Part shown: positions 33,628 to 64,000 of the stretch, in pieces
Position numbering within the stretch: position 1 is the first letter of the stretch
Layout of the letters: each line of letters starts with the position of its first letter
Source of the DNA: Leptasterias polaris
Taxonomy: Eukaryota > Echinodermata > Asteroidea > Forcipulatida > Asteriidae
Assembly: GCA_037783415.1 (NCBI GenBank)
Contig: JAZGTN010000047.1
Coordinates: 1,674,001-1,738,000 of the forward strand
Length of the DNA stretch: 64,000 nucleotides
Reading direction: 5' to 3'
The notes under the pieces: model-generated
Told to the model about the DNA's origin: nothing
Database searches by the model: none
The model's input: the letters and a program-made list of their open reading frames with translations, nothing else
Program-made: the position numbers and the translations under genes

Positions 33628-36600
33628 ATGAGTTCTCAAGAGAAGACTTTAATTTGTGACTTGGGTAGAGCAACAAAAAGAAACCTGAAAAAACAGCAAG
33701 AAGCAGACACTTCAAAGTCACTGACAATACATCGGCACGTTGATGCTGGAGAAAAGAAGTTTGTCTGTGACATTTGTGGCAAAGCCTTTAAAAAAAAATT
33801 TGTCCTTACCACTCATCAGCATGTCCACACTGGAGAAAAACCATTTGTTTGTGACGTTTGTGAAAAAGCATTTTCTCAAAAAAACACTTTAAGTACTCAC
33901 CAGAGAATCCACACTGGAGAGAAACCATTTGTTTGTGACCTTTGCGGGAAAGCATTTTCTCGTAAACACAACCTTATCAGCCACCAGTTAACCCACACGG
34001 GAGAGAAACCATTTACTTGTGACTATTGTGGGAAAGCGTTTGTTTTTAAAAGCAACCTTGTCAGCCACCACCGAATCCATACTGGAGAGAAACCATATGT
34101 CTGCGATGTTTGTGGGAAAGCCTTTTCGCGTAAACATCACCTGGAAAACCATCTGCGGTCCCATACCGGAGAGAAACCATTTGTTTGTGACATTTGTGGT
34201 AAAGCCTTTTTACACAAATGTAAACTTACCACTCATCAGCGTGTCCACACTGGAGAGAAACCATCTGTTTGTGATATTTGTGGAAAAGCTTTTTCACACA
34301 AATGTACACTGACAGCCCATCAGCATATCCACACTGGAGAGAAACAATTTGCTTGTGACATTTGTGGAAAAGCCTTTCTGCGTACCAATAACCTGTTAAC
34401 GCATAAGCGTATCCACACTGGAGAGAAACCATTTGTCTGTGATATTTGTGGAAAAGCTTTCTCACATAAAGGTTCACTGACAGCCCATCAGCGTGTCCAC
34501 ACTGGAGAGAAACCATCTGTCTGCGATGTTTGTGGGAAAGCCTTTTCGCGTAAACATCACCTGGAAAACCATCTGCGGTCCCATACCGGAGAGAAACCAT
34601 TTGTTTGTGACATTTGTGGTAAAGCTTTTTCACACAAATGTACACTGACAGCCCATCAGCATATCCACACTGGAGAGAAACCATTTGTTTGTGACATTTG
34701 CGGGAAAGCATTTTCTCGTAAACACAACCTTATCAGCCACCAGTTAACCCACACGGGAGAGAAACCATTTACTTGTGACTATTGTGGGAAAGCGTTTGTT
34801 TTTAAAAGCAACCTTGTCAGCCACCACCGAATCCATACTGGAGAGAAACCATATGTCTGCGATGTTTGTGGGAAAGCCTTTTCGCGTAAACATCACCTGG
34901 AAAACCATCTGCGGTCCCATACCATAGAGAAACCATTTGTTTGTGACATTTGTGGTAAAGCCTTTTTACACAAATGTAAACTTACCACTCATCAGCGTGT
35001 CCACACTGGAGAGAAACCATCTGTTTGTGATATTTGTGGAAAAGCTTTTTCACACAAATGTACACTGACAGCCCATCAGCATATCCACACTGGAGAGAAA
35101 CAATTTGCTTGTGACATTTGTGGAAAAGCCTTTCTGCGTACCAATAACCTGTTAACGCATAAGCGTATCCACACTGGAGAGAAACCATTTGTCTGTGATA
35201 TTTGTGGAAAAGCTTTCTCACATAAAGGTTCACTGACAGCCCATCAGCGTGTCCACACTGGAGAGAAACCATCTGTCTGCGATGTTTGTGGGAAAGCCTT
35301 TTCGCGTAAACATCACCTGGAAAACCATCTGCGGTCCCATACCGGAGAGAAACCATTTGTTTGTGACATTTGTGGTAAAGCTTTTTCACACAAATGTACA
35401 CTGACAGCCCATCAGCATATCCACACTGGAGAGAAACCATTTGTTTGTGACATTTGCGGGAAAGCATTTTCTCGTAAACACAACCTTATCAGCCACCAGT
35501 TAACCCACACGGGAGAGAAACCATTTACTTGTGACTATTGTGGGAAAGCGTTTGTTTTTAAAAGCAACCTTGTCAGCCACCACCGAATCCATACTGGAGA
35601 GAAACCATATGTCTGCGATGTTTGTGGGAAAGCCTTTTCGCGTAAACATCACCTGGAAAACCATCTGCGGTCCCATACCATAGAGAAACCATTTGTTTGT
35701 GACATTTGTGGTAAAGCCTTTTTACACAAATGTAAACTTACCACTCATCAGCGTGTCCACACTGGAGAGAAACCATCTGTTTGTGATATTTGTGGAAAAG
35801 CTTTTTCACACAAATGTACACTGACAGCCCATCAGCATATCCACACTGGAGAGAAACAATTTGCTTGTGACATTTGTGGAAAAGCCTTTCTGCGTACCAA
35901 TAACCTGTTAACGCATAAGCGTATCCACACTGGAGAGAAACCATTTGTCTGTGATATTTGTGGAAAAGCTTTCTCACATAAAGGTACACTGACAGCCCAT
36001 CAGCGTGTCCACACTGGAGAGAAACCATTTGTCTGCGATGTTTGTGGGAAAGCCTTTTCGCGTAAACATCACCTGGAAAACCATCTGCGGTCCCATACCG
36101 GAGAGAAACCATTTGTTTGTGACATTTGTGGTAAAGCCTTTTTACACAAATGTAAACTTACCACTCATCAGCGTGTCCACACTGGAGAGAAACAATTTGA
36201 TGGTGACATTTGTGGAAAAGCCTTTCTGCGTACCAATAACCTGTTAACGCATAAGCGTATCCACACTGGAGAGAAACCATTTGTCTGTGATATTTGTGGA
36301 AAAGCTTTCTCACATAAAGGTACACTGACAGCCCATCAGCGTGTCCACACTGGAGAGAAACCATCTGTTTGTGATATTTGTGGAAAAGCTTTTTCACACA
36401 AATGTACACTGACAGCCCATCAGCAAATCCACACTGGAGAGAAACCATTTGTTTGTGACATTTGCGGGAAAGCATTTTCTCGTAAACACAACCTTATCAG
36501 CCACCAGTTAACCCACACGGGAGAGAAACCATTTACTTGTGACTATTGTGGGAAAGTGTTTGTTTTTAAAAGCAACCTTGTCAGCCACCGCCGAATCCAT

Positions 36601-36690
36601 ACTGCAGAGAAACCATATGTCTGCGATGTTTGTGGGAAAGCCTTTACACAAAAACAAGGCTTGACCAAACATCAGCGTGTCCACACTTAA
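33628..36690 (+). CDS. C2H2 zinc-finger protein, 35 fingers (copy A)
   Basis: The open exon reads about 1,020 residues from the ATG at 33,628. The earlier in-frame ATG at 33,613 lies in the splice-acceptor tract and is rejected. A 45-residue leader (SQEKTLICDLGRAT...) is followed by 35 fingers of 28 residues each including linkers. About ten finger types recur, including [36 protein letters not shown] and [10 protein letters not shown] nine-finger, 756-bp block is repeated: 33,958-34,713 and 34,714-35,469 are near identical, with a third copy from 35,470 that is altered later. Finger 30 reads FDGDIC, losing its first cysteine. Two linkers read TIEKP in place of TGEKP. It presumably binds DNA in the nucleus. 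The stop is TAA at 36,688. Upstream exons were not found. Assembly collapse or expansion is possible in such repeats. Confidence 0.75.
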   Translation: MSSQEKTLICDLGRATKRNLKKQQEADTSKSLTIHRHVDAGEKKFVCDICGKAFKKKFVLTTHQHVHTGEKPFVCDVCEKAFSQKNTLSTHQRIHTGEKPFVCDLCGKAFSRKHNLISHQLTHTGEKPFTCDYCGKAFVFKSNLVSHHRIHTGEKPYVCDVCGKAFSRKHHLENHLRSHTGEKPFVCDICGKAFLHKCKLTTHQRVHTGEKPSVCDICGKAFSHKCTLTAHQHIHTGEKQFACDICGKAFLRTNNLLTHKRIHTGEKPFVCDICGKAFSHKGSLTAHQRVHTGEKPSVCDVCGKAFSRKHHLENHLRSHTGEKPFVCDICGKAFSHKCTLTAHQHIHTGEKPFVCDICGKAFSRKHNLISHQLTHTGEKPFTCDYCGKAFVFKSNLVSHHRIHTGEKPYVCDVCGKAFSRKHHLENHLRSHTIEKPFVCDICGKAFLHKCKLTTHQRVHTGEKPSVCDICGKAFSHKCTLTAHQHIHTGEKQFACDICGKAFLRTNNLLTHKRIHTGEKPFVCDICGKAFSHKGSLTAHQRVHTGEKPSVCDVCGKAFSRKHHLENHLRSHTGEKPFVCDICGKAFSHKCTLTAHQHIHTGEKPFVCDICGKAFSRKHNLISHQLTHTGEKPFTCDYCGKAFVFKSNLVSHHRIHTGEKPYVCDVCGKAFSRKHHLENHLRSHTIEKPFVCDICGKAFLHKCKLTTHQRVHTGEKPSVCDICGKAFSHKCTLTAHQHIHTGEKQFACDICGKAFLRTNNLLTHKRIHTGEKPFVCDICGKAFSHKGTLTAHQRVHTGEKPFVCDVCGKAFSRKHHLENHLRSHTGEKPFVCDICGKAFLHKCKLTTHQRVHTGEKQFDGDICGKAFLRTNNLLTHKRIHTGEKPFVCDICGKAFSHKGTLTAHQRVHTGEKPSVCDICGKAFSHKCTLTAHQQIHTGEKPFVCDICGKAFSRKHNLISHQLTHTGEKPFTCDYCGKVFVFKSNLVSHRRIHTAEKPYVCDVCGKAFTQKQGLTKHQRVHT
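33958..36225 (+). repeat. 756-bp (nine-finger) tandem repeat in the copy A exon
   Basis: Finger order 3-11 is repeated as 12-20 and 21-29 with almost no nucleotide change in the first two units. The third unit diverges after its seventh finger, where finger 28 is followed directly by an LHKCKL finger. The exact multiple of 84 bp preserves both frame and finger register. Confidence 0.9.
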
Positions 36691-37400
36691 GTGAAACTAT
36701 TTGTTTAATACATTTGTGGGAAAACATTTTCAGAAAAACGTACCCTGAACAACCATTGGGGTGTCCACACTGGAGAAAAAACATTTGTTTGTGAAAAGCA
36801 TTTGCTTATAAATGTAGTCTTATTTTACACTGGAGAGAAACAATTTTTTGTTGGAAAACATTCTTATGCAAAAGTGGTCTGAGTATCCACACTGGGGAGA
36901 AACCATTTTGTTTCTGATCTTTGTTGAAAACTTCACTTTATGGCCCATCAGACACTGGAGAAAAACTATTTGCAAAGTATGTTTGCGACATAAGTGGAAA
37001 AGCCTTTTCATATAAACATACCTTGACATATCATCAGCGTACCCACACTGGGGAGAAATTAATCACACGCAAATTTTGTACTTTTTTAAAAATGATTGGC
37101 AACCTATCAAACCATTAAGTGATTACAGGTGTGTGAAATTTGCCCCAAGGGGTTAAGTGGTAATTCCATTTCAGTCAACATAAAAAAAACACACACAGGA
37201 TAGAAACGGTTTATTTGTGACATTTGTAGTAGAAAGCATAGAGGAAGAGTAGCTTTACAGCTGCATGAGAAAATCCACACTGGAGAGAGGTCATTGTTTG
37301 TGGTACTTGTGGATACTTAGCTTTCACTAATTTGAAAAAGTTTCAATTCAGCATGAGTCAATCCATGCCGGAGAGAGTTCGTTTGTTTATGTGCACTTTA
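36691..37400 (+). pseudogene. Decayed 3' fingers of copy A
   Basis: Remnants follow the same order as after 31,310: TTTGTTTAATACATTTGTGG, an EKRTLNNHW finger, then a [21 protein letters not shown] finger with a cysteine replaced. Stops and frameshifts separate them. Two satellite-type units (TCCACACTGGAGAGAGGTCA) end the block. Confidence 0.75.
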
Positions 37401-37630
37401 TGTTTTTTATGACGGAATAGTACCTTAATTCAGCAAGATTGTAATATTGTTTCCCCAATTATTGTAACTGTTTTAAGAATAGATTAAGTAGTTACTGTGG
37501 TATACTGAAGATTGTCTTTTTATACCAAGATGGAAATAGAAATAAATATGAGAACCAAGAAAAGAAGAACTTTGCTTCATTTTGTTTGTAAAAGACCCAC
37601 TTTTCATCATCATCATCAACAACACAACAT
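37400..37630. other. Non-coding segment shared by copies A, B and C
   Basis: It is near identical to 49,360-49,580 and 57,285-57,490. It includes a CATCATCATC run of variable length (near 37,606). No gene. Confidence 0.5.
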
Positions 37631-37795
37631 GCTCAGGAAGAGCGTAGCGCCTCAACAATGCAGTTTTCACTCCAGCTGGTTCTGGGCGAGTCTTTTACCA
37701 GCTGACAGATTCAGTCCCAGTGCCCTTAGGTCTTCTTTTAGGTTGTCCTTCTATCGCAAACGGGGTGACCCATTGGACGGAGCCAGCTGGGGGCA
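37630..37795 (-). pseudogene. Possible LINE endonuclease-RT C-terminal remnant (copy A)
   Basis: On the minus strand the DNA can be read as KDNLKEDLRALGLN then LAQNQLEWK, which recalls the conserved tail of some non-LTR retrotransposon reverse transcriptases (RW.D..K.D...G......A.DR..W). Stops interrupt it. Copies are at 49,580-49,745 and 57,490-57,655. The family match is from memory and tentative. Confidence 0.4.
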
Positions 37796-37840
37796 GGCTC
37801 CTTCAACAGAAGAGCAGGCTCCCCTGTTTTCATGATGTAT
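37796..37840. repeat. 21-bp unit, one to two copies (copy A)
   Basis: GGCTCCTTCAACAGAAGAGCA occurs once plus a partial second unit. This is the unexpanded state of the 32-unit array at 49,746-50,417. Confidence 0.85.
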
Positions 37841-38165
37841 CTGAACTGAGATTGGATGGGAAATAAATTGCTCCTTGTGTTTTCAGAATCTAATTATGTT
37901 GCATTGATGGAACGGTCTCAGGCATCTGAAAGTTATTTAGACCCAATCAGGGGCATATCCAGGATTTTCAAATGGGGGTGGGGGGGGGGGGGGGACACAC
38001 TTCAAGGGGCTAATTTGAAAGTTTATTGTCTATAATCCAAAATTATTTTAGCAGGTGACCAAAATTAGTTTTGAATGATAAGCACATGCAAGTTGTGAAA
38101 TTCTGGTTCATAGATAGAAGACTGAACAAATTAGTCAATTTGGAGGTACAGTATAATTGTCAAGC
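37841..38165. other. Non-coding segment shared with copies B and C
   Basis: It is alignable with 57,690-58,010. It includes a G-run of about 18 near 37,978 whose length differs between copies. Confidence 0.5.
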
Positions 38166-39828: not shown

Positions 39829-40692
39829 ATGCCCATTAAACATCCTTGCATTGAATGTAATTATTCAGTTAAAACTAATCAAAATGCAATTCAGTGCGAT
39901 ATTTGTGACAACTGGACACACCTAAAGTGCACCTGTTTTTCTCTTAATGACTATAATGAATTGTCAAATAGTGACCGGCAATGGTTTTGCAAAACCTGCT
40001 TATCAAACTCCCTGCCCTTTAACTCTCTGGAAAAAAATGAATTTAATGAATTTATAGCTGAAAACAATAATTTACCAGTACAAACCCCTAATAATTATGG
40101 TGCCGCAAATGCCGATCTCTTGTCTAATCTTAACATCAATGTGGATCCTGCTATCGATAACCCAATTACCAATACGTGCGTTTATTCTGAAGAAGATCAA
40201 TTTATTAAAAATTTCAATGATGTAAATTCTGATTCATTACTGACACTAATCCATTTTAATATTCGAAGCCTCGCTAAAAACTTTGATAATTTAAAATCTC
40301 TCCTTCAGTCATTCAATGAATTTTCGCTTATTTCTCTCACTGAAACTTGGTTAAGAGAATCCTCCCCTGATATTTTCTTCCTGCCTGGCTATAAATTAAT
40401 TAATAACAATAGAAACAGTAAATTAGGTGGTGGAGTAGCCTTTTATATCAAGTCCAACATAAATTATATCATCAGACAAGATCTCTATCACTCTACTGAG
40501 TCTTTGGAGTCCCTTTTCATTGAAACAAAAAATTCAAACTCTGGTTCTAAAAACGATATTTTTGGCGTAATATATAAACCACCACAAGCTTCCCATCCGG
40601 AATTTATGACACTATTTGAAGATATTATATCACAACTCTCTACTGAAAAAAAAGATGCTTTCTCTCCGGAGATTTTAACATTAATCTCCTAG
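39829..40692 (+). pseudogene. LINE ORF 5' part: PHD-like finger and N-terminal endonuclease
   Basis: Residues 8-60 form a Cys4-His-Cys3 PHD-like finger (CIEC, CDICDNWTHLKC, WFCKTC). A linker follows, and from about residue 135 the first half of an APE-type endonuclease (HFNIRSL, SLTETWL, GGGVAFY). The endonuclease nicks target DNA for target-primed reverse transcription. The frame breaks in the A8 run at 40,646-40,653. The GDFN motif lies after it in the other frame, consistent with loss of one A. The last residues before the stop at 40,690 are therefore out-of-frame. Confidence 0.85.
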
Positions 40693-43091
40693 AATATAAT
40701 AATAATAAGAATACGCAAGATTTTCTTGACACAATTTATTCCAACTCCTTCCTCCCACTTATTGATAAACCTACAAGAATCACTAGAAACTCAGCCACCT
40801 TAATTGACAATATATTTACTAACATGTTACCCCCTCCTAATAAATCTTATATTTTAATTTCTGACATATCTGATCATTTTCCAATTTCTACATCTATCCC
40901 CTCGCATACCTTAAACAAAAGACAAGTATCTAACAGTGCACTCACTCGCAATTACACAGAGGAAGCTTTGGAAGATTTTTCTAAAGATTTGCGGGAGTTT
41001 GACTGGTCAAATGTGTATAATTCCGATGATCCTAATATTGCTTTTGAGAACTTCAACAATACATTTGAATTTCTGCATGATAAAAATATAGTAAAAATTA
41101 CAAAGAAGAAGCACAAGCAGGCACAACCTAAATCTCCATGGATTACTGCATCACTCTTAAAATCGATTAAACTAAAAAATAAACTATATTCCAAATTTAT
41201 AAAAAAATAAAATAATTTGAATCATCTCAACTATATTAAATACAGAAATATATTAACTAAAGTTCTAAGAAATGCCAAGAAAAATTACTTTGCTCTTCAA
41301 TTTGAAAAAGAGAAAAATAATGTTAAAAATACATGGAAAATTATACAATCTGTTTTAAATAAACAGCCAGTTTCTAAGAAAATAACTTCCATTTCCCACA
41401 ATGATAAAGTTGTTAATGACCCCCAAGAAATGGCAACCATTTTCAATAAACACTTCATAAACATTGGACCAAATTTGGCCAGTCAGATCCCCCATTGTGT
41501 CAAGGCTTTCCAAGAATATCTCCCTTCTACTAATCCTAACACAATGTTTTTTGCACCTGCTTCAAAGCAGGAAGTACTTAACACTTTAAATAATCTTGGT
41601 AATAAAAAAAGCTCTGGCTTTGATTGTGTCAACTCCTTTGTTGTTAAGAAAGTAATTAATGGTATAGCTGACCCTCTTACTCACATTATTAATATGTCCT
41701 TATCTACTGGAATTGTACCTGATAAACTTAAAATTGCCAAGGTTATTCCCGTCTTTAAAAAAGGAAATTCTGTTTCAATTTCCAATTACCGACCTATTTC
41801 TGTACTTACCTGTTTCTCTAAAATCTTTGAAAGAATAGTTTATAAACGCACGATTGATTTTCTAAATGCTTATAATATTTTGTCAAATTGTCAATTTGGC
41901 TTCCGTGCCAAGCATTCTACAACTCATGCAATTCTCAACTTAATTAATAAGGTTACTGGTGCTATCGACAATTGTGAAACCACTCTAGGGGTTTTCTTAG
42001 ACTTCTCCAAAGCCTTTGATACTCTTAATCATGATATTTTATTGTATAAACTTAATCACTATGGTATTAGAGGAAAACCCCTGGAGTGGTTCAAGAGCTA
42101 TTTATTTGGTAGGAAACAACATGTCTCTTTAAATGGGAGCGTTTCATCATCACAGTATTTATCATGTGGGATTCCACAGGGATCAATCCTTGGCCCCCTT
42201 CTTTTCATAATTTATATAAATGATATTGCAAATGCATCAAATATTCTATCTTGTGTACTTTATGCAGATGACTCTAACTTGTTTTATAGCCATAAAAATA
42301 TTGACACTCTCATTAATACAGTAAATACAGAACTAAAAGTGATTTATGAATGGATAAATTGTAACAAATTGTCTTTAAATGTACAAAAAACCAACTGTAT
42401 GCTTTTCAATAACACCTATGATATATTACCCAGACCAGTATATATGAACGATATCGTTATAAATCAAGTTAATAGCATTAAATTTCTGGGTCTATATATA
42501 GATAGCAAACTTACTTGGAAAAATCATATTGATTATTTGTGTAATATAATTAGTAGAAATATTGGTATTATAAATAGACTAAAAAGCTTTCTCCCTCAAA
42601 ATATCTTATTCACCCTTTATTCAACACTAATTTGTTCTTATATTGACTATGGTATATTAGCATGGGGAAATGCCTGTGCAACGATTCTTAATAGATTGAC
42701 TCTACTGCAAAAAAGGGCTATACGTATAATTTCCAATTCCAGTTACATTGAACATACTGATCCCCTATTCTATCGATTTAGTACCTTAAAGATTAAGGAC
42801 CGTTATCATTACAACCTTGCAATTTTTATGTTTCAAGTGCATCGCAATGTAATTCCAAACTCCCTTACAAGCATATTCGCTCATAATAATACTATTCATT
42901 CGCACGCTACACGTCAGGCCACTCAACTGCATATTCCATTCACTCGAACTAATCTTGCTCAAAAAACCATAAAGTTTGCTGGTCCTAAATTATGGAATTC
43001 TTTGGATTCTTCTATTGCCAATTTGAAATCAATTAATTCTTTCAAAAAATCATTAAAAAAATCCATCCTAAATATATATAAACATACATAA
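40654..43091 (+). pseudogene. LINE ORF 3' part: endonuclease end and reverse transcriptase
   Basis: After the frameshift, the frame carries GDFN, then SDISDHFPI (endonuclease end). A TAA at 41,208-41,210 interrupts it before the same frame resumes at 41,217 for 624 residues. Reverse-transcriptase blocks appear in order: SNYRPISVLTCFSKIFE, GFRAKHSTTHA, FLDFSKAFDTLNH, GIPQGSILGPLLF, and the catalytic YADD (about 42,260). KFLGLYIDSKLTW and the thumb/C-terminal tail follow. The polymerase copies element RNA at the nicked target. With only two lesions the copy is young, but it cannot make the whole protein. Confidence 0.9.
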
Positions 43092-45392: not shown

Positions 45393-45866
45393 TAATGATT
45401 CTCATTTTGTCCACCACTCACAGGAACTTAAGAAACACCTTGTTTCCAGGGGTCACAGCTCCCAAGCAGTAGCAGTAGCAGTCCATCGAGTGATTCAGAA
45501 AGTCAAGGCTCGTTCTAGGAAGTCTGTACTCTCCAAAGGACCCAAGCAACGTTGAAATTTCCTTTAGTTGTTACTTTTCACCCCTCACATCCTCCCATTC
45601 GTAACCAGTTCTATATTCTTCATTTTCTTCACACATCAGATCGGCTTCAACGTGCTGTACAGGAAAAACCCATAATTGCCTACCAACTCCCACTCAGTCT
45701 CAGGGATCTCATCGTCCGGGCAGAAGGCCCCCCCCCCCCCCCCCCCATTAAGGATGATGTTAATCCCCCTTTGCCTCGGGGTACTTTGAGGTTTTCCAAC
45801 ACATCTAAATGCATCAGTTGTAGACAAAACATCAGGGATTCAGACTCCTTTACCAGCCATACTGGT

Positions 45867-46136
45867 TAAGCCTGGGCGACTAGTGAAATTCACTACTTGA
45901 CTAGTTGCACCTCAAATAGTCGCAACAATGACACTAGTCGCGACTAATAACTCCCATGATGCATTGCGGTTTATTGTTTGCTGCAGGCGCAATATAGTAA
46001 AATTAATTTTTGTAGTAGTCGTGACTATTTTTGTAGTAGTCGTGGCGGCGCAATTAATCGAGTAGTTGAAAAACGGTAGTCCCGACTAGACTAATTAATC
46101 AATAGTCGCGACTTCGACAGTAGTCGCCCAGGCTTA
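45867..46136. mobile_element. hAT-type MITE, 270 bp, in Penelope (copy A)
   Basis: ATACTGGT is duplicated at 45,859-45,866 and 46,137-46,144. An 8-bp duplication is the hAT hallmark. The inverted ends are TAAGCCTGGGCGACTA and AGTCGCCCAGGCTTA. The interior is full of TAGTCGCGACTA-type palindromes. The identical insertion is in copy C (59,949-60,218). Confidence 0.9.
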
Positions 46137-46906
46137 ATACTGGTGGTACCACCCGAAGACAAGGGATTAGGTCACCTGCACCACCACTAATCTAATCTAT
46201 CTTATATCTTTCAGAGTTTGTGGTGTTCAATATATAGGTGAAACAAGAACTACACTCAAGAGGCCTTTCTACGGCCACATATCCCAATCAGCACCCAAAA
46301 GCTGGATACACCTGTAGGACACCACTTCAACCACTCCATTTTTGACATGAATTTACAGGGCATTGAGGCACTAGGTAACTGCAGAGAGACTGTTCGTCTG
46401 AGTAGGGAGAAACTATGGATAAGGTGCATAAAGACCACTCAGCCCCATGGTTTGAACATCCAAGAAGGAAATAACTAATAAACTTTTGTCTTTGCCTTCT
46501 CCCTTTCCCCCCCCCCCACAGATATCCACATTTTTGGTCTGCCCTAATTACTAATTATTTACTTTTCTTTCTAAATTCCATTTTGTCCTTTGTGTTTCCA
46601 ACTTCTTCTGGTCAAGCCATCCCCTTATCTCCATAACCCCCCCCCCCCCTTGTCTCCATAATCCTTGCCTTTTGCTTCTCTCTCTCTCTCTCTCTCCACT
46701 CTCTCTATTCTTGTATTTCCACTTGACTGCTCTTGTTACTCCTGTATGCTTGTATGTTGTTAGCCCTATAATTATAGGACTCTGTGCTGTACACATACGA
46801 AAGTGAAAGGCCGCCAGGGCTAGTATGCTGTGTGTTGTGTTGTCATTTAGCCTTCGAGAAAGACTCTGCTAGGTTCGAAACGTCAGGCCACTGACTTATT
46901 TTGTGC

Positions 46907-49330: not shown

Positions 49331-49745
49331 AGAGTTCGTTTGTTTATGTGCACTTTGTTTTTTATGACGGAAAAGTACCTTAATTCAGCAAGATTGTAAT
49401 ATTGTTTCCCCAATTATTGTAACTGTTTTAAGAATAGATTAAGTAGTTACTGTGGTATACTGAAGATTGTTTTTTTATAACAAGATGGAAATAGAAATAA
49501 ATATGAGAACCAAGAAAAGAAGAACTTTGCTTCATTTTGTTTGTAAAAGACCCTCTTTTCATCATCATCATCAACACAACATGCTCAGGAAGAGCGTAGC
49601 GCCTCAACAATGCAGTTTTCACTCCAGCTGGTTCTGGGCGAGTCTTTTACCAGCTGACAGATTCAGTCCCAGTGCCCTTAGGTCTTCTTTTAGGTTGTCC
49701 TTCTATCGCAAACGGGGTGACCCATTGGACGGAGCCAGCTGGGGG
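49331..49745. other. Shared segment with LINE-like remnant (copy B)
   Basis: Near identical to 37,385-37,795 and 57,240-57,655. The plus-strand open frame through it is continuous with the 21-bp array but has no sign of selection for coding. Confidence 0.5.
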
Positions 49746-50417
49746 CAGGCTCCTTCAACAGAAGAGCAGGCTCCTTCAACAGAAGAGCAGGCTCCTTCAA
49801 CAGAAGAGCAGGCTCCTTCAACAGAAGAGCAGGCTCCTTCAACAGAAGAGCAGGCCCCTTCAACAGAAGAGCAGGCCCCTTCAACAGAAAAGCAGGCCCC
49901 TTCAACAGAAGAGCAGGATCCTTCAACAGAAGAGCAGGCTCCTTCAACAGAAGAGCAGGCTCCTTCAACAGAAGAGCAGGCTCCTTCAACAGAAGAGCAG
50001 GCTCCTTCAACAGAAGAGCAGGCCCCTTCAACAGAAGAGCAGGCCCCTTCAACAGAAGAGCAGGCCCCTTCAACAGAAGAGCAGGCTCCTTCAACAGAAG
50101 AGCAGGCTCCTTCAACAGAAGAGCAGGCTCCTTCAACAGAAGAGCAGGCTCCTTCAACAGAAGAGCAGGCTCCTTCAACAGAAGAGCAGGCTCCTTCAAC
50201 AGAAGAGCAGGCTCCTTCAACAGAAGAGCAGGCACCTTCAACAGAAGAGCAGGCCCCTTCAACAGAAGAGCAGGCCCCTTCAACAGAAGAGCAGGCCCCT
50301 TCAACAGAAGAGCAGGCCCCTTCAACAGAAGAGCAGGCTCCTTCAACAGAAGAGCAGGCTCCTTCAACAGAAGAGCAGGCTCCTTCAACAGAAGAGCAGG
50401 CTCCTTCAACAGAAGAG
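49746..50417. repeat. 21-bp minisatellite, 32 units
   Basis: CAGGCTCCTTCAACAGAAGAG is repeated 32 times with a few variants, and blocks of CCCC and CTCC variants alternate in runs. The period is a multiple of three, so four of the six frames stay open, giving QAPSTEE and LLQQKSR repeats on the plus strand, and EPALLLK and SSVEGAC on the minus. Copies A and C have only one to two units, so the expansion is specific to copy B. Confidence 0.95.
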
Positions 50418-50562
50418 CAGGATTCTTTGTTGATGTATCTGAACTGAGATTGGATGGGAAATAAATTGCTCCTTGTGTATTCATAATCTAATTTATGTTG
50501 CACTGATGTAACGGTCTCAGGCATCTGAAAATTATTTAGACCCAATCAGGGGCGTATCCGGG
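50418..50562. other. Shared flank after the minisatellite
   Basis: Homologous to 37,830-37,960 and 57,680-57,815 (TGTATCTGAACTGAGATTGG, GGTCTCAGGCATCTGAAA). Confidence 0.5.
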
Positions 50563-52905: not shown

Positions 52906-56550
<3,645 letters not shown>

Positions 56551-57240
56551 GTGAAACCATTTGTTTAATACATTTGTGGGAAAACATTTTCAGAAAAACG
56601 TACCCTGAACAACCATTGGGGTGTCCACACTGGAGAAAAACCATTTGTTTGTGAAAAGCATTTGCTTATAAATGTAGTCTTATTTTACACTGGAGAGAAA
56701 CAATTTTTTGTTGGAAAACATTCTTATGCAAAAGTGGTCTGAGTATCCACACTGGGGAGAAACCATTTTGTTTCTGATCTTTGTTGAAAACTTCACTTTA
56801 TGGCCCATCAGACACTGGAGAAAAACTATTTACAAAGTATGTTTGCGACATAAGTGGAAAAGCCTTTTCATATAAACATACCTTGACATATCATCAGCGT
56901 ACCCGCCCACACTGGGGAGAAATTAATCACACGCAAATTTTGTACTTTTGTTTTAATGATTGGCAACCTATCAAACCATTAAGTGATTACAGGTGTGTGA
57001 AATTTGCCCCAAGGGGTGGTAATTCCATTTCAGTCAACATAAAAAAAAACCACACAGGATAGAAACGGTTTATTTGTGACATTTGTAGTAGAAAGCATAG
57101 AGGATGAGTAGCTTTACAACTGCATGAGAAAATCCACACTGGAGAGAGATCATTTTTTTGTTTGTGATACTTGTGGATACTTAGCTTTCACTAATTTGAA
57201 AAAGTTTCAATTCAGCATGAGTCAATCCATGCCGGAGAGA
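56551..57240 (+). pseudogene. Decayed 3' fingers of copy C
   Basis: Same series as 36,691-37,400, with the GAAAAGCATTTGCTTATAAATG segment shared with A and missing from B. Confidence 0.75.
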
Positions 57241-59181
<1,941 letters not shown>

Positions 59182-60283
59182 TGATGCTATATTGATGACA
59201 TCTTTTTCATTTGGACTAGTGATGAACATGATGAAGCAAGCCTCATAGCATTCAATAACCACATTCCTTTAACAGGACCATCAATTTCACGATTGAATTC
59301 TCGACCAAGGAAACCCACTTTCTGGATGTCAAGGTTATAAAGACAGATGATGGCTTAACGACAGATCTCTTTGTCAAACCCACAAATAAACATCAATACC
59401 TCCACTCAACCAGCTGTAATACCCCCAACACTGCAAAAGCATAGCCTACAGTCTCAGGCCCTCAGACTCTGTCGAATCTGTTCTAATGATTCTGATTTTG
59501 TCCACCACTCACAGGAACTTAAGAAACACCTTGTTTCCAGGGGTCACAGCTCCCAAGCAGTAGCAGTAGCAGTCCATCGAGTGATTCAGAAAGTCAAGGC
59601 TCGTTCTAGGGAGTCTGTACTCTCCAAAGGACCCAAGCAACGTTGAAAGTTCCTTTTGTTGTTACTTTTCACCCCTCTCATCCTCCCATTCGTAACCAGT
59701 TCTATCCATCATATTCTTCACACATCAGATCGGCTTCAACGTGCTGTACAGGAAGAACCCATAATTGCCTACCAACGCCCACTCAGTCTCAGGGATCTCA
59801 TCGTCCGGGCAGAAGGCCCCCCCCCCCCATTAAGGATGATGTTAATCCCCCTTTGCCTCAGGGTACTTTGAGGTTTTCCAACACATCTAAATGCATCAGT
59901 TGTAGACAAAACATCAGGGATTCAGACTCCTTTACCAGCCATACTGGTTAAGCCCTGGCGACTAGTGAAATTCATTACTTGACTAGTTGTGCCTCAAATA
60001 GTCGCAACAATGACACTAGTCGTGACTAATAACTCCCATGATGCATTGCGGTTTATTGTTTGCTGCAGGCGCAATATAGTAAAATTAATTTTTGTAGTAG
60101 TCGCGACTATTTTTGTAGTAGTCGTGGCAGCGCAATTAATCGAGTAGTTGAAAAACAGTAGTCGCGACTAGACTAATTAATCAATAGTCGCGACTTCGAC
60201 AGTAGTCGCCCAGGCTTAATACTGGTGGTACCACCCATAAGACAAGGGATTAGGTCACCTGCACCACCACTAATCTAATCTAT
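59182..60283 (+). mobile_element. Penelope-like element (copy C), part 1
   Basis: Same truncation point and insertion site as copy A, so it was inserted before the duplication. The frame retains pieces around the RT catalytic YIDD block, the KPTNKHQYL segment and the CRICSNDSDFVHH...RGHSSQAVAVAVHR region (59,371-59,646). There is no solo LTR here. Stops and frameshifts are present. Confidence 0.85.
59949..60218. mobile_element. hAT-type MITE, 270 bp (copy C)
   Basis: Flanked by ATACTGGT at 59,941-59,948 and 60,219-60,226, with the same ends and length as 45,867-46,136. Both copies sit at the same Penelope position. Confidence 0.9.
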
Positions 60284-60600
60284 TGTAACAATAATTTTGT
60301 CCACAGATTCTTCTCAGCAGAACACAACAAAAACACACAGCAGGATACAGTTTTCTCGGTCAATTCTTTACTGGTTTATTCAACACGTCTCTACTCCAAG
60401 ACTCACATGACAAGAAGAACGTTTAGGCCACGTCTTCCCAACGAGACGGGTGTCCCAGCCGTTCAGCGAGGGGCCCGCTGCGACACAGCTCTAACAACGG
60501 TGCCGTGTCACAGCGCCCTCCAGGAGGCCGCTCGGTAACACGGCTCCCACCGAGCCCGTGCTGGCGCCCTCTCGCTGAACGGTCTGGGCCAAACGCTACA
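60284..60600 (-). repeat. LTR (3' LTR in element orientation)
   Basis: 317 bp, identical by eye to the other LTR except at the third plus-strand base (TGT against TGG). On the minus strand an AATAAA (60,375-60,380) can serve as the polyadenylation signal. Confidence 0.9.
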
Positions 60601-63123
60601 CTGCCCCCTCCAAGAACACTGCTTGTCCCCAAGCAGGCAGCGAACTCCCGTCCCGGTGGGAACACGCAACAACAACAACAACAACAACAACAAAAAGGCT
60701 GGCAAGTCTGTCCTACTATGGCTGTTGGCCTTGTGTCTCTGGTCCGGCCGTCCCCGGCGGTGGCTGTCGCTGGGTCTCCGTCGGTTCCCACTCCATCCGC
60801 TCCATCCTCCACTCGTTCCGCAGGTGCGGAGCTGATTCACAGGCTCCGCTCCATAGGTTTGTACAGTGCGGGGCTGAGCCGTTGGCTCCGTTCCATGGGG
60901 TTGTTTGCGGAGCTGATTGACAGGCTCCGCACAATAGAATTGTGTAGTGCGGAGCTGAGCCGTGGGCTCTGCTCCATTGGTTTGCACAGTGCGGAGCTGA
61001 TTCACAAGCTCCGCTCCATAGGGTTGTGCAGTGCGGAGCTGAGCTGTGGGCTCCGCTCCATTGGTTTGTACAGTGCGGAGCTGATTGACAAGCTCCGCTC
61101 CATAGGGTTGTGTAGTGCGGAGCTGAGCCGTGGGCTCTGCTCCATTGGTTTGTACAGTGCGGAGCTGATTGACAAGCTCCGCTCCATAGGGTTGTGTAGT
61201 GCGGAGCTGAGCCGTGGGCTCTGCTCCATTGGTTTGTACAGTGCGGAGCTGATTCACAAGCTCCGCTCCATAGGGTTGTGTAGTGCGGAGCTGAGCCGTG
61301 GGCTCTGCTCCATTGGTTTGTACAGTGCGGAGCTGATTCACAAGCTCCGCTCCATAGGGTTGTGTAGTGCGGAGCTGAGCCGTGGGCTCTGCTCCATTGG
61401 TTTGTACAGTGCGGAGCTGATTCACAAGCTCCGCTCCATAGGGTTGTGTAGTGCGGAGCTGAGCCGTGGGCTCTGCTCCATTGGTTTGTACAGTGCGGAG
61501 CTGATTGACAAGCTCCGCTCCATAGGGTTGTGTAGTGCGGAGCTGAGCCGTGGGCTCTGCTCCATTGGTTTGTACAGTGCGGAGCTGATTCACAAGCTCC
61601 GCTCCATAGGGTTGTGTAGTGCGGAGCTGAGCCGTGGGCTCTGCTCCATTGGTTTGTACAGTGCGGAGCTGATTCACAAGCTCCGCTCCATAGGGTTGTG
61701 TAGTGCGGAGCTGAGCCGTGGGCTCTGCTCCATTGGTTTGTACAGTGCGGAGCTGATTGACAAGCTCCGCTCCATAGGGTTGTGTAGTGCGGAGCTGAGC
61801 CGTGGGCTCTGCTCCATTGGTTTGTACAGTGCGGAGCTGGTTCACAAGCTCCGCTCCATAGGGTTGTGTAGTGCGGAGCTGAGCCGTGGGCTCTGCTCCA
61901 TTGGTTTGTACAGTGCGGAGCTGATTCACAAGCTCCGCTCCATAGGGTTGTGTAGTGCGGAGCTGAGCCGTGGGCTCTGCTCCATTGGTTTGTACAGTGC
62001 GGAGCTGATTCACAAGCTCCGCTCCATAGGGTTGTGTAGTGCGGAGCTGAGCCGTGGGCTCTGCTCCATTGGTTTGTACAGTGCGGAGCTGATTGACAAG
62101 CTCCGCTCCATAGGGTTGTGTAGTGCGGAGCTGAGCCGTGGGCTCTGCACCATTGGTTTGTACAGTGCGGAGCTGAGCCGTGTGCTCCGCTCCATAGGTT
62201 TGTACAGTGCGGAGCTGAGCCGTGTGCTCCGCTCCATAGGTTTGTGCAGTGCGGAGCTGAGCCGTGTGCTCCGCTCCATTGGTTTGTGCAGTGCGGAGCT
62301 GAGCCGTGGGCTCCGCTCCATAGGTTTGTGCAGTGCGGAGCTGATTGACAGGCTCCGCACAAAAGAAATGTGCGGGGTCGAGTTGAATCAAATTCTCTGT
62401 CTCATAGGCCTGTGCTGTCAGCCTCTGGTCAACAAGACCACGCACTTCCGTGCCGTGACTTCGTGGCTCCTGGGCCCGCTGCGGTGTAGACTGGGCATCC
62501 CCCATGTGGGCACGCTCCCGGAAGAAAGGCCCCGAAGAAAGCTGCTCCACAACCGCATGTCCGGGGTGAGGATGGCCCAGTTCCGAAAAGAGCCGCGCTC
62601 TGATGTCTCCCGCCGAATGCCACGGGGAGGGGAAGGTCGGTTCCGTGTGGGACCGCCCCAACCCCTCCCTGGTCTCTGGGGCATGCTGCGGAGAGGCACA
62701 GAACTGCTTCCTTGGAACCCGCTCCGATCCTTCCCCCCTCACGTCGGTGCTCCGTCGCCCCGACCCTTCCGCCCCTCTCATGTCGGTGCTCTGTTGAGAG
62801 AACCAGAACGATTCTGTGAGGGATCGCCCCGACCCCTCCAGCCCCCTCGTGTCTGTGCTCTGTTGAGAGAGCCGGAACGATTCCGAGGGATCGCCCCGAC
62901 CCCTCCGCCCACTTCGTGCCGGTACGTTGCGGAGGGAGCCGGAACGATTCCGTGTGGTACCGCTCCGACCCCCCGCGCCCACCTGACCCGACGTGGACGT
63001 GACTCTACTGACCTTAAGAACCTGTGGCTGACCCCCCTCATCTCCACTGTTGCTCCTACCGGCCTCTCCCAGCCCTAGGAATGATAAAATCTCATCCACT
63101 GTAGACCACAATGGCCCACCCAT
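60508..63123 (-). CDS. Long repeat-encoded ORF of the LTR element
   Basis: A minus-strand frame is open from 63,327 to 60,508 (939 residues). The first ATG lies inside the LTR, so the ATG at 63,123 (about 871 residues) is a likelier start. The N-terminal part (GGPLWSTVDEILSFLGLGEA, then Gly/Arg/Ser-rich repeats with SQQSTD motifs) could be a divergent Gag-like leader. About 510 residues are a 28-residue repeat with QLRTVQTNGAEPTAQ and QPYGAELV. No zinc knuckle or enzymatic motif is seen. An 857-residue plus-strand frame covers the same DNA. Repeats with a period divisible by three keep frames open by chance, so coding is uncertain. Confidence 0.3.
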   Translation of the reverse strand: MGGPLWSTVDEILSFLGLGEAGRSNSGDEGGQPQVLKVSRVTSTSGQVGAGGRSGTTRNRSGSLRNVPARSGRRGRGDPSESFRLSQQSTDTRGLEGSGRSLTESFWFSQQSTDMRGAEGSGRRSTDVRGEGSERVPRKQFCASPQHAPETREGLGRSHTEPTFPSPWHSAGDIRARLFSELGHPHPGHAVVEQLSSGPFFRERAHMGDAQSTPQRAQEPRSHGTEVRGLVDQRLTAQAYETENLIQLDPAHFFCAEPVNQLRTAQTYGAEPTAQLRTAQTNGAEHTAQLRTAQTYGAEHTAQLRTVQTYGAEHTAQLRTVQTNGAEPTAQLRTTQPYGAELVNQLRTVQTNGAEPTAQLRTTQPYGAELVNQLRTVQTNGAEPTAQLRTTQPYGAELVNQLRTVQTNGAEPTAQLRTTQPYGAELVNQLRTVQTNGAEPTAQLRTTQPYGAELVNQLRTVQTNGAEPTAQLRTTQPYGAELVNQLRTVQTNGAEPTAQLRTTQPYGAELVNQLRTVQTNGAEPTAQLRTTQPYGAELVNQLRTVQTNGAEPTAQLRTTQPYGAELVNQLRTVQTNGAEPTAQLRTTQPYGAELVNQLRTVQTNGAEPTAQLRTTQPYGAELVNQLRTVQTNGAEPTAQLRTTQPYGAELVNQLRTVQTNGAEPTAQLRTTQPYGAELVNQLRTVQTNGAEPTAQLRTAQPYGAELVNQLRTVQTNGAEPTAQLRTTQFYCAEPVNQLRKQPHGTEPTAQPRTVQTYGAEPVNQLRTCGTSGGWSGWSGNRRRPSDSHRRGRPDQRHKANSHSRTDLPAFLLLLLLLLLRVPTGTGVRCLLGDKQCSWRGQCSVWPRPFSERAPARARWEPCYRAASWRAL
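60601..60611 (-). promoter_or_regulatory. Candidate polypurine tract of the LTR element
   Basis: GGAGGGGGCAG on the minus strand directly abuts the downstream LTR's TGTAGCG start, as expected for the plus-strand primer of reverse transcription. Confidence 0.6.
60664..60693. repeat. CAA microsatellite
   Basis: About nine CAA units followed by AAAAGG. Confidence 0.9.
60824..62374. repeat. 42-bp / 84-bp hairpin minisatellite
   Basis: About 37 units of 42 bp run from 60,824 to 62,374 with one 3-bp slip near 60,905. From 60,947 the register is exact, and two alternating 42-bp types form an 84-bp higher-order unit over most of the array. Type 1 holds GCGGAGCT-N8-AGCTCCGC. Type 2 holds GGAGCTGAGCC-GTG-GGCTCTGCTCC with one mismatch. 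The last five units are more alike and lose the alternation. Confidence 0.95.
62720..62995. repeat. Second GC-rich minisatellite, about 75-bp period
   Basis: CGCCCCGACCCYTCC, GTCGGTGCTC and GAACGATTCCG-type blocks recur three to four times with length changes. It gives the repeated SQQSTD segments of the minus-strand frame. Confidence 0.65.
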
Positions 63124-63253
63124 TGTCTGAGTCTGGCTCGGCGTGTCCCCAGCATCTGCTGAGTCTGACGCCAAACTACCCAACACACGTGAAAACCCCC
63201 ACAGAGAAAACAATCTTTTTACCTGATTCCAGTGTCTTGCTAGTGCTCCTGCC

Positions 63254-63271
63254 GTCCCGTCGCTGCCACCA
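63254..63271 (-). promoter_or_regulatory. Candidate primer-binding site of the LTR element
   Basis: The minus strand reads TGGTGGCAGCGACGGGAC one base after the LTR end. It begins TGG, as expected for pairing with a tRNA 3' CCA. The primer tRNA is not identified. Confidence 0.6.
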
Positions 63272-63272
63272 A

Positions 63273-63589
63273 TGGAACAATAATTTTGTCCACAGATTCT
63301 TCTCAGCAGAACACAACAAAAACACACAGCAGGATACAGTTTTCTCGGTCAATTCTTTACTGGTTTATTCAACACGTCTCTACTCCAAGACTCACATGAC
63401 AAGAAGAACGTTTAGGCCACGTCTTCCCAACGAGACGGGTGTCCCAGCCGTTCAGCGAGGGGCCCGCTGCGACACAGCTCTAACAACGGTGCCGTGTCAC
63501 AGCGCCCTCCAGGAGGCCGCTCGGTAACACGGCTCCCACCGAGCCCGTGCTGGCGCCCTCTCGCTGAACGGTCTGGGCCAAACGCTACA
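63273..63589 (-). repeat. LTR (5' LTR in element orientation)
   Basis: 317 bp with AATAAA on the minus strand at 63,364-63,369. The plus-strand start is TGGAAC where the other LTR has TGTAAC, so the canonical CA terminus is changed on this internal edge only. Confidence 0.9.
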
Positions 63590-64000
63590 CTATCTTATAT
63601 CTTTCAGAGTTTGTGGTGTTCAATATATAGGTGAAACAAGAACTACACTCAAGAGGCGTTTCTATGGCCACATATCCCAATCAACACCCAAAAGCTGGAT
63701 ACACCTGTAGGACACCACTTCAACCTTCCTAACCACTCCATTTCTGACATGAATTTACAGGGCATTGAGGCACTAGGTAACTGCAGAGAGACTGTTCGTC
63801 TGAGTAGGGAGAAACTATGGATAAGGTGCATAAAGACCACTCAGCCCCATGGTTTGAACATCCAAGAAGGAAATAACTAATAAACTTTTGTCTTTGCCTT
63901 CTCCCTTTCCCCCCCACAGATATCCACATTTTTGGTCTGCCCTAATTACTAATTATTTACTTTTCTTTCTACCTTCCATTTTGTCCTTTGTGTTTCCAAC
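63590..64000 (+). mobile_element. Penelope-like element (copy C), part 2
   Basis: Continues from the LTR insertion with the GIY-YIG nuclease start (VCGVQYIGETRTTLK, then RFYGH) and the C-terminal LSREKLWIRC...LNIQEGN region and C/T-rich 3' UTR. It runs off the window. Confidence 0.85.

What the first reader, a model, noticed from the sequence alone, without database searches (positions are those of the whole stretch)
60284..63589. Very young LTR element whose body is hairpin minisatellite, with no gag-pol
The sequence shows two 317-bp LTRs differing at one base, a 4-bp CTAT duplication, an uninserted site in copy A, and PBS- and PPT-like positions on the minus strand. The interior is mainly 37 hairpin-forming 42-bp units. 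The near-identical LTRs imply recent mobilisation by another element's enzymes, so the repeats may be packaging or dimerisation signals, or cargo. I know of no named family with this body.
Basis: partly seen in the sequence, partly recalled or inferred. Interest (0 to 1): 0.8.

Follow-up and report, generated by a model that had tools for sequence, protein, structure and literature searches.

The report
Parasitic gypsy element with repeat-protein ORF
This is one of dozens of very young, stripped-down copies of a Ty3/gypsy jumping element; it has lost the copying genes, keeps a long repeat-protein reading frame, and is very likely moved by a full-length sister element found in the same genome.

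Summary
In detail: two 317-bp LTRs with one mismatch, CTAT duplicated, an exact empty site in the paralogous segment, minus-strand PBS and PPT, and about 37 42-bp units. The element is multicopy. All 30 loci behind the 40 scored LTR hits are two-LTR copies with perfect 4-bp TSDs, nearly identical LTR pairs and 6 to 67 array anchors. A related N-terminal region begins the 3165-aa frame of a full-length Ty3/gypsy family in the same genome (N-terminal region, repeat array, Gag-like segment, RT, RNase H, integrase, C2H2 finger). That family shares LTR, PBS and PPT and has 11 copies with essentially identical RT. The window element is therefore best read as a deletion derivative that lost gag-pol. 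Three of 30 copies are recombinants: 5' interior 99.9-100% identical to the autonomous copy, LTRs and 3' end of the non-autonomous type, strong evidence for co-packaging. The PBS fits tRNA-Leu(TAG). The hairpins are real, but one control suggests they may follow from codon usage, and a six-anchor copy still inserted, so a packaging role for a long array is not supported. New variant of a known kind.

The parts
63273..63589 (-). 5' LTR (317 bp) in element orientation; AATAAA on the minus strand at 63369
63254..63271 (-). Primer binding site TGGTGGCAGCGACGGGAC; 15 of 18 match the 3' end of a host tRNA-Leu(TAG) plus CCA; 6 of 30 copies carry the 18-of-18 version
63124..63272 (-). 5' leader between LTR and first in-frame ATG (contains the PBS)
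60508..63123 (-). 871-codon open reading frame including stop TGA; reads N-terminal region, 14-aa repeats and 3' region and ends about 90 nt inside the 3' LTR; same start in 27 of 30 copies
62755..62980 (-). Three degenerate 67-69 bp (about 23 codon) repeats in the N-terminal region; one copy is read in a shifted frame through a compensated indel pair (inferred from the alignment to L033)
60824..62358 (-). Tandem array of 42-bp units (84-bp dimers) = 14-aa repeats; copy number varies between loci
60601..60822 (-). 3' region related to the autonomous element's 3' end (two blocks, 84% and 81% identical), including a (TTG)n tract; ends in the polypurine tract
60601..60611 (-). Polypurine tract GGAGGGGGCAG next to the 3' LTR, identical in 30 of 30 copies and in the autonomous copy read
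60284..60600 (-). 3' LTR (317 bp)
60280..60283 (.). Target site duplication CTAT, left copy
63590..63593 (.). Target site duplication CTAT, right copy
45393..46602 (+). Paralogous segment without the insertion (empty site near 46201)

Best explanation
The element is a non-autonomous deletion derivative of a Ty3/gypsy LTR retrotransposon family that was recently active in the same genome. The full-length partner (about 10.3 kb in the copy read) has one 3165-aa frame: unique N-terminal region, 14-aa repeat array, Gag-like segment with weak zinc-knuckle and protease signals, RT, RNase H, integrase, C2H2 zinc finger. The window element kept LTRs, PBS, leader, N-terminal region, array, 3' end and PPT, and lacks everything between the array and the 3' end. 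Shown from sequence: multicopy, very young, 4-bp TSDs at an NTAN target, shared LTR/PBS/PPT, in-frame 42-nt units, recombinants with the partner. Inferred: the LTR promoter makes an RNA that is packaged by the partner's Gag, primed by tRNA-Leu(TAG), reverse transcribed and inserted in trans. The variable unit number would then come from slippage or template switching within the array during reverse transcription. Whether the remaining 871-aa frame is translated, and what it does, is open; I think it is mostly inherited coding sequence.
For: All 30 of 30 loci have perfect 4-bp TSDs, 28 of 30 of the form ATAN or NTAT, and 1 substitution in 9000 compared LTR sites (first 300 nt of each pair). The partner's LTR is 96.7% identical over 269 nt plus 90.7% over 54 nt, with an insert of about 40 nt, and has the same PPT. 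RVT_1 2e-31, RNase H 7e-35, H2C2 1e-14, rve 3e-15 and C2H2 3e-7 lie in the same 3165-aa frame. Eleven of 98 listed RT matches are about 100% identical; 10 of these 11 have an N-terminal match and 9 the PBS pattern within 12 kb. L033, L037 and L027: sequence after the PBS and N-terminal stretch 99.9-100% identical to the autonomous copy, 3' region 100% and LTRs 99.1-99.4% identical to the window copy; two ordinary copies (L010, L036) show the window pattern throughout. The rarer PBS version matches tRNA-Leu(TAG) 18 of 18.
Against: No RNA, particle or protein data. The partner was read in pieces of one copy only. The 30 loci were the best-scoring LTR hits, so the sample leans towards young copies. 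L033, L037 and L027 could in principle come from gene conversion rather than template switching. The Gag-like segment is weak: zinc knuckle, protease and Ty3 capsid all fall below their Pfam cut-offs. The commoner PBS version (24 of 30) differs from the tRNA at 3 of 18 bases, and no tRNA gene with its sequence was among the places listed (only part of 231 listed). In the first 51 codons dN/dS (0.64) does not single out the ORF frame, as another sense frame scores 0.40. Codon tests inside the array are inconclusive: 7 of 15 and 7 of 16 changes silent.
Confidence: 0.88

Rival explanations
1. The hairpin array is a cis-acting RNA signal (packaging, dimerisation or nuclear export) kept because it makes the derivative a better passenger; its coding frame is incidental.
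For: Strong hairpins on the transcript strand, z -10 for 420 nt against dinucleotide shuffles; two of three synonymous controls put the folding in the best 2.5-4.3%; some array is kept in all 30 copies.
Against: With the ORF's own codon usage 199 of 1000 synonymous versions fold as well. L016 has only 6 array anchors and still has both LTRs and a TSD. In the autonomous family the array is part of the polyprotein frame.
Confidence: 0.15
2. A semi-autonomous element: the repeat protein is made and matters, for example as a Gag-associated or competing factor, so selection keeps the frame open.
For: The frame runs to the same stop in 26 of 27 copies with the common start, at 452-1305 aa. dN/dS is 0.41 and 0.29 in two overlapping parts of the N-terminal region between the window's lineage and the autonomous-type sequence carried by L033. 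A pair of indels compensates over 81 nt.
Against: Copies are so young that open frames may just be inherited. L009 and L037 carry a shifted frame and still inserted; L027 lacks the N-terminal start. The divergence may have built up in autonomous ancestors. No homologue found in two protein searches, which are limited by shared words and length.
Confidence: 0.25
3. An ordinary satellite or minisatellite that happens to sit between two LTR fragments or arose by local duplication.
For: The array looks like a classical VNTR.
Against: 46 of 46 array places from the 150 scored matches are inside this element family; TSDs 30 of 30; empty site present.
Confidence: 0.02

Closest known systems
Ty3/gypsy (Metaviridae) LTR retrotransposons; K02A2.6-like gag-pol proteins
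   Same: RT, RNase H and integrase order and domains in the partner; PBS, PPT and LTR anatomy in the window element; the partner's pol piece is 38-65% identical to the 120 relatives listed.
   Different: The partner has roughly 1000 aa of N-terminal region plus repeat array before the Gag-like segment, in one frame, and a C2H2 finger at its end; none of the 120 listed relatives carries PF00096. considers only proteins up to about 2215 aa, so it cannot show that longer relatives with such an extension are absent. The window element itself has no gag-pol.
Plant gypsy elements with internal minisatellites: Gmr9/GmOgre of soybean (PMC3305785, abstract and discussion read) and Retand (PMC7264820 passages; PMC11963269 listing only)
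   Same: Tandem array of variable copy number inside an LTR element; in Gmr9 the repeats lie almost wholly in LTR retrotransposons.
   Different: In Gmr9 the array lies between the coding region and the 3' LTR; here it is in frame and 5' of the Gag-like segment.
Non-autonomous/autonomous pairs such as wheat RLC_Angela, WHAM/Sabrina/Wilma and barley BARE2 (PMC9744471 passages read)
   Same: Parasite and partner share LTR signals; template switching is named there as one route for LTR exchange.
   Different: Here recombinants are near-identical to both parents, and the parasite keeps a long open frame with repeats.
TRIM and LARD elements (recalled)
   Same: LTR element without pol.
   Different: TRIMs are very short and LARDs long and non-coding (recalled); this one is about 2.0-4.6 kb with a long open frame.

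Membership tests
LTR retrotransposon | Two LTRs beginning TG and ending CA, target site duplication, PBS and PPT | tested here: met
Ty3/gypsy (Metaviridae), autonomous partner | Pol order RT, RNase H, integrase | tested here: met
   RT, RNase H and integrase in this order in one frame
Ty3/gypsy (Metaviridae), autonomous partner | Gag with capsid and zinc knuckle, and an aspartic protease | tested here: inconclusive
   matches to protease, zinc knuckle and Ty3 capsid, all below their cut-offs
Ty3/gypsy, window element itself | Encodes Gag and Pol | tested here: not met
   Pfam finds nothing in the N-terminal and 3' pieces; the array piece matches GatC (E 1.9e-13, no stretch passing alone) and KH_NucS_shadow (E 2.5e-5, below cut-off), judged repeat-composition artefacts, and no gag or pol family
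Non-autonomous derivative of that gypsy family | Shares LTR, PBS, PPT and flanking interior with an autonomous family in the same genome | tested here: met
TRIM | Very short element without coding capacity (definition recalled) | tested here: not met
   3306 bp with an 871-codon frame
LARD | Over 4 kb with non-coding interior (definition recalled) | tested here: not met
   2.0-4.6 kb, long open frame
Gag-only element (TR-GAG or BARE2-like) | Keeps one of Gag or Pol (definition recalled) | tested here: not met
   no gag or pol family in the kept interior; the partner's Gag-like segment lies downstream of the array
Retand/Ogre-type element with internal minisatellite | Array between the coding region and the 3' LTR | tested here: not met
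   array is 5' of the Gag-like segment and in the long frame

The most novel reading that the evidence does not exclude
A Ty3/gypsy lineage has turned its Gag N-terminus into a hypervariable coding minisatellite. Parasitic copies that keep only this repeat protein ride on the partner's particles, with the repeat protein itself, not just the RNA, giving them entry or a competitive advantage, and with the array serving as a hotspot for exchange between parasite and host element.
Probability: 0.22. Interest if true: 0.7.

Novelty: new variant of a known kind. Interest (0 to 1): 0.5.

Why it matters
It gives, in one genome, a parasite, its likely helper and three near-identical recombinants between them, all so young that events can be read base by base. 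That makes it possible to test how LTR parasites are packaged, how often reverse transcription switches template, and whether a coding repeat array at the front of Gag matters. It is also a caution: a hairpin-rich minisatellite can be a protein-coding repeat when read on the right strand.

Tried and rejected
Protein homologues of the N-terminal region and array: none found at E up to 10 and 1 in two searches with different length ranges (both limited by shared words and length), none in the PDB by sequence at E up to 10, no Pfam match for the N-terminal and 3' pieces, none in viral contigs (16 stretches matched a pattern, none confirmed).

RNA structure as the main function: folding beats dinucleotide shuffles but not synonymous versions with the ORF's codon usage (199 of 1000); two other controls were lower (43 and 25 of 1000), so this is left open.

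Predicted fold of the array: AlphaFold2 gives a confident beta structure (pLDDT 91), but a wrong-frame control of the same stretch also gives a beta structure (78.5), Foldseek finds nothing at E <= 0.001, and such predictions for repeats are reported as unrealistic (PMC11795689, title and abstract start in a search listing). Rejected as evidence.

Codon test within the array: 7 of 15 and 7 of 16 changes silent in the ORF frame; inconclusive. An antisense frame sharing third positions gives the same low dN/dS as the ORF frame (0.39 and 0.28); one plus-strand frame with all four B-unit changes silent carries stops in the units.

The open frame by itself: Markov-simulated versions of the N-terminal and 3' stretches stay open in 1.8% and 37%, and a plus-strand frame is also open over 883 codons, so openness alone was not taken as proof of coding.

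A satellite outside the elements: none among the 46 array places, but only 150 of 1531 candidates were scored.
Full report
What is there. At 60284-63589 an LTR element sits in minus orientation: LTRs of 317 bp with one mismatch, PBS, leader, long interior, PPT, CTAT duplicated. The paralogous segment near 46201 has the same flanks with a single CTAT and no insert. The insertion interrupts sequence that next reads a short GIY-YIG-like piece (PF01541, E 0.0014, below its cut-off).

It is multicopy and very young. A search with the LTR gave 240 candidates, of which 40 were scored, all at 99-100%. These 40 hits fall into 30 loci (10 with both LTRs among the hits, 20 with one); all 30 were read, including the window. 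This sample leans towards copies with the most similar LTRs. All 30 have two LTRs and identical 4-bp duplications: GTAT 8, ATAT 7, ATAG 5, ATAC 5, CTAT 2 and three singles; 28 of 30 are ATAN or NTAT, so integration prefers an NTAN core. Over the first 300 nt of the LTR pairs there is 1 substitution in 9000 sites. Further differences lie in the last 16 nt next to the PBS in several copies, the window included. Element length ranges from 2048 to 4606 bp, mainly through the array: 6 to 67 array anchors per copy; 1208 of 1239 anchor spacings are 42 nt, 30 are 81 (one per copy) and 1 is 43.

The interior looks like coding sequence. On the minus strand one frame is open from 63348 to 60511; the first ATG is at 63123 and the frame has 871 codons, ending inside the 3' LTR. 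A plus-strand frame is also open over 883 codons. Among the 27 copies with the common start, 26 end at the same stop, with 452 to 1305 codons; L009 is shifted. Between the window's lineage and the autonomous-type sequence carried by L033, dN/dS in this frame is 0.41 over 145 codons and 0.29 over the 94 codons at its end; the other sense frames there score 1.0 or more, while one antisense frame that shares third positions scores the same. In the first 51 codons the test does not discriminate (0.64 against 0.40 in another sense frame). A 1-nt and a 2-nt indel restore each other's frame over 81 nt. Within the array the codon test is inconclusive. The stronger evidence is the partner.

The partner. 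The N-terminal region was searched in the genome: 159 matches, 150 of 174 candidates scored, the end of the list not shown. Forty-two are full-length at 99-100% (the window's lineage). Among matches at about 70%, 8 lie in open frames of 3165 aa and one in 3193 aa; others at about 70% lie in shorter frames (992-2661 aa), and a further group at about 73% lies in frames of 1273-2002 aa (18 rows). One 3165-aa copy (C5) was read in three separate pieces. It has the LTR with an insert of about 40 nt, the same PPT, the N-terminal region, 38 array anchors in one piece alone, then a stretch with protease, zinc-knuckle and Ty3-capsid matches all below cut-off, RT 2e-31, RNase H 7e-35, integrase H2C2 1e-14, rve 3e-15, and a C2H2 finger 3e-7, then the related 3' end and LTR. 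A search with an RT-containing piece gave 98 matches, from 2320 candidates of which 98 were scored. Eleven are about 100% identical (9 of them in frames of 3165 or 3193 aa), 8 other loci are at 93-99%, and the next family is at 47%. Of the 11, 10 have the N-terminal match and 9 the PBS pattern within 12 kb. The group at about 73% has no RT match nearby in that capped list (compared by eye), and one copy keeps more of the partner's 3' end (L049), so it looks like a second non-autonomous line.

Origin. The window's 3' region matches the partner's 3' end in two blocks, 84% over 209 nt and 81% over 54 nt. The array is joined to that 3' end, so loss of gag-pol by deletion is the simplest reading; a gap of about 215 nt in the 3' region is a second difference. 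In the window the 3' region is read in another frame than in the partner, whose own C-terminus ends in GQQP; this ending occurs in a shifted frame of the window element and in the shifted copies L009 and L037.

Mobilisation. The PBS occurs in two 18-nt versions, 24 and 6 of 30 copies. The rarer one matches the 3' end plus CCA of a host tRNA gene at 18 of 18, which ARAGORN calls tRNA-Leu(TAG). The commoner one differs at 3 of 18; no tRNA gene with that version was among the places shown, which lists only part of 231 sites. The 20-nt PBS pattern of the commoner version has 89 sites with up to 2 mismatches, 86 of them exact, and none in the reversed control. L033, L037 and L027 carry the partner's sequence after the PBS and in the N-terminal stretch (99.9-100%) but the window type's 3' region (100%) and LTRs (99.1-99.4%); two ordinary copies compared the same way do not. 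The switch lies in or near the array. One template switch in the array during minus-strand synthesis, primed on the non-autonomous RNA, would produce this; that step is inferred, and gene conversion is not excluded.

The repeats. The hairpins are strong against dinucleotide shuffles. Against synonymous rewrites of the same peptide the result depends on the control: 199, 43 and 25 of 1000 fold as well. The copy with 6 anchors has both LTRs and a TSD. A role in packaging is possible but not needed to explain the data. All 46 array places from the 150 scored matches are inside the family.

Comparison with the literature. Searches in the open PMC set returned, among others, plant gypsy elements with minisatellites and wheat parasite/partner systems; (tandem repeats in gag, four phrasings) returned none. 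In these listings I saw no gypsy family with a coding minisatellite before Gag; most subscription papers and the repeat databases were not searchable here, so the family may be catalogued. Papers seen: PMC3305785 (abstract and discussion), PMC9744471 and PMC7264820 (passages), the others as listings only.

Noticed in passing
window 33909-38163 and 53756-58000: Two 4.3-kb blocks of C2H2 zinc-finger arrays, 86% identical, one with a 1025-codon open frame; a duplicated zinc-finger gene cluster.
   Followed up: partly
window 49745-50421: A 21-bp tandem repeat, 32 copies at 98%, open in several frames (7-aa repeat APSTEEQ in one).
   Followed up: no
window 39829-43091: A LINE-like element: PHD finger and weak endonuclease match in one frame, RT domain in the next.
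   Followed up: partly
G000:C214 about 967-991 kb: A tandem cluster of sites with the tRNA-Leu 3' end, often about 150 bp apart; 231 sites in the genome, most of those listed in this cluster.
   Followed up: partly
G000:C58 near 1594682: An N-terminal region of the window's lineage lies in an unusually long open frame (2338 aa) without a listed RT match nearby; unexplained.
   Followed up: no
second subfamily, e.g. G000:C5:4151890 (L045, L049): Eighteen listed matches at about 73% in the N-terminal region with frames of 1273-2002 aa; the copy read keeps more of the partner's 3' end; apparently a second non-autonomous line.
   Followed up: partly
L046:629-1939 (minus strand): The autonomous frame has a C2H2 (BED-like) zinc finger after integrase, in a genome region rich in C2H2 arrays.
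   Followed up: no
last 16 nt of the LTRs in several of 30 copies: LTR differences cluster right next to the PBS, possibly from imprecise start of reverse transcription.
   Followed up: no
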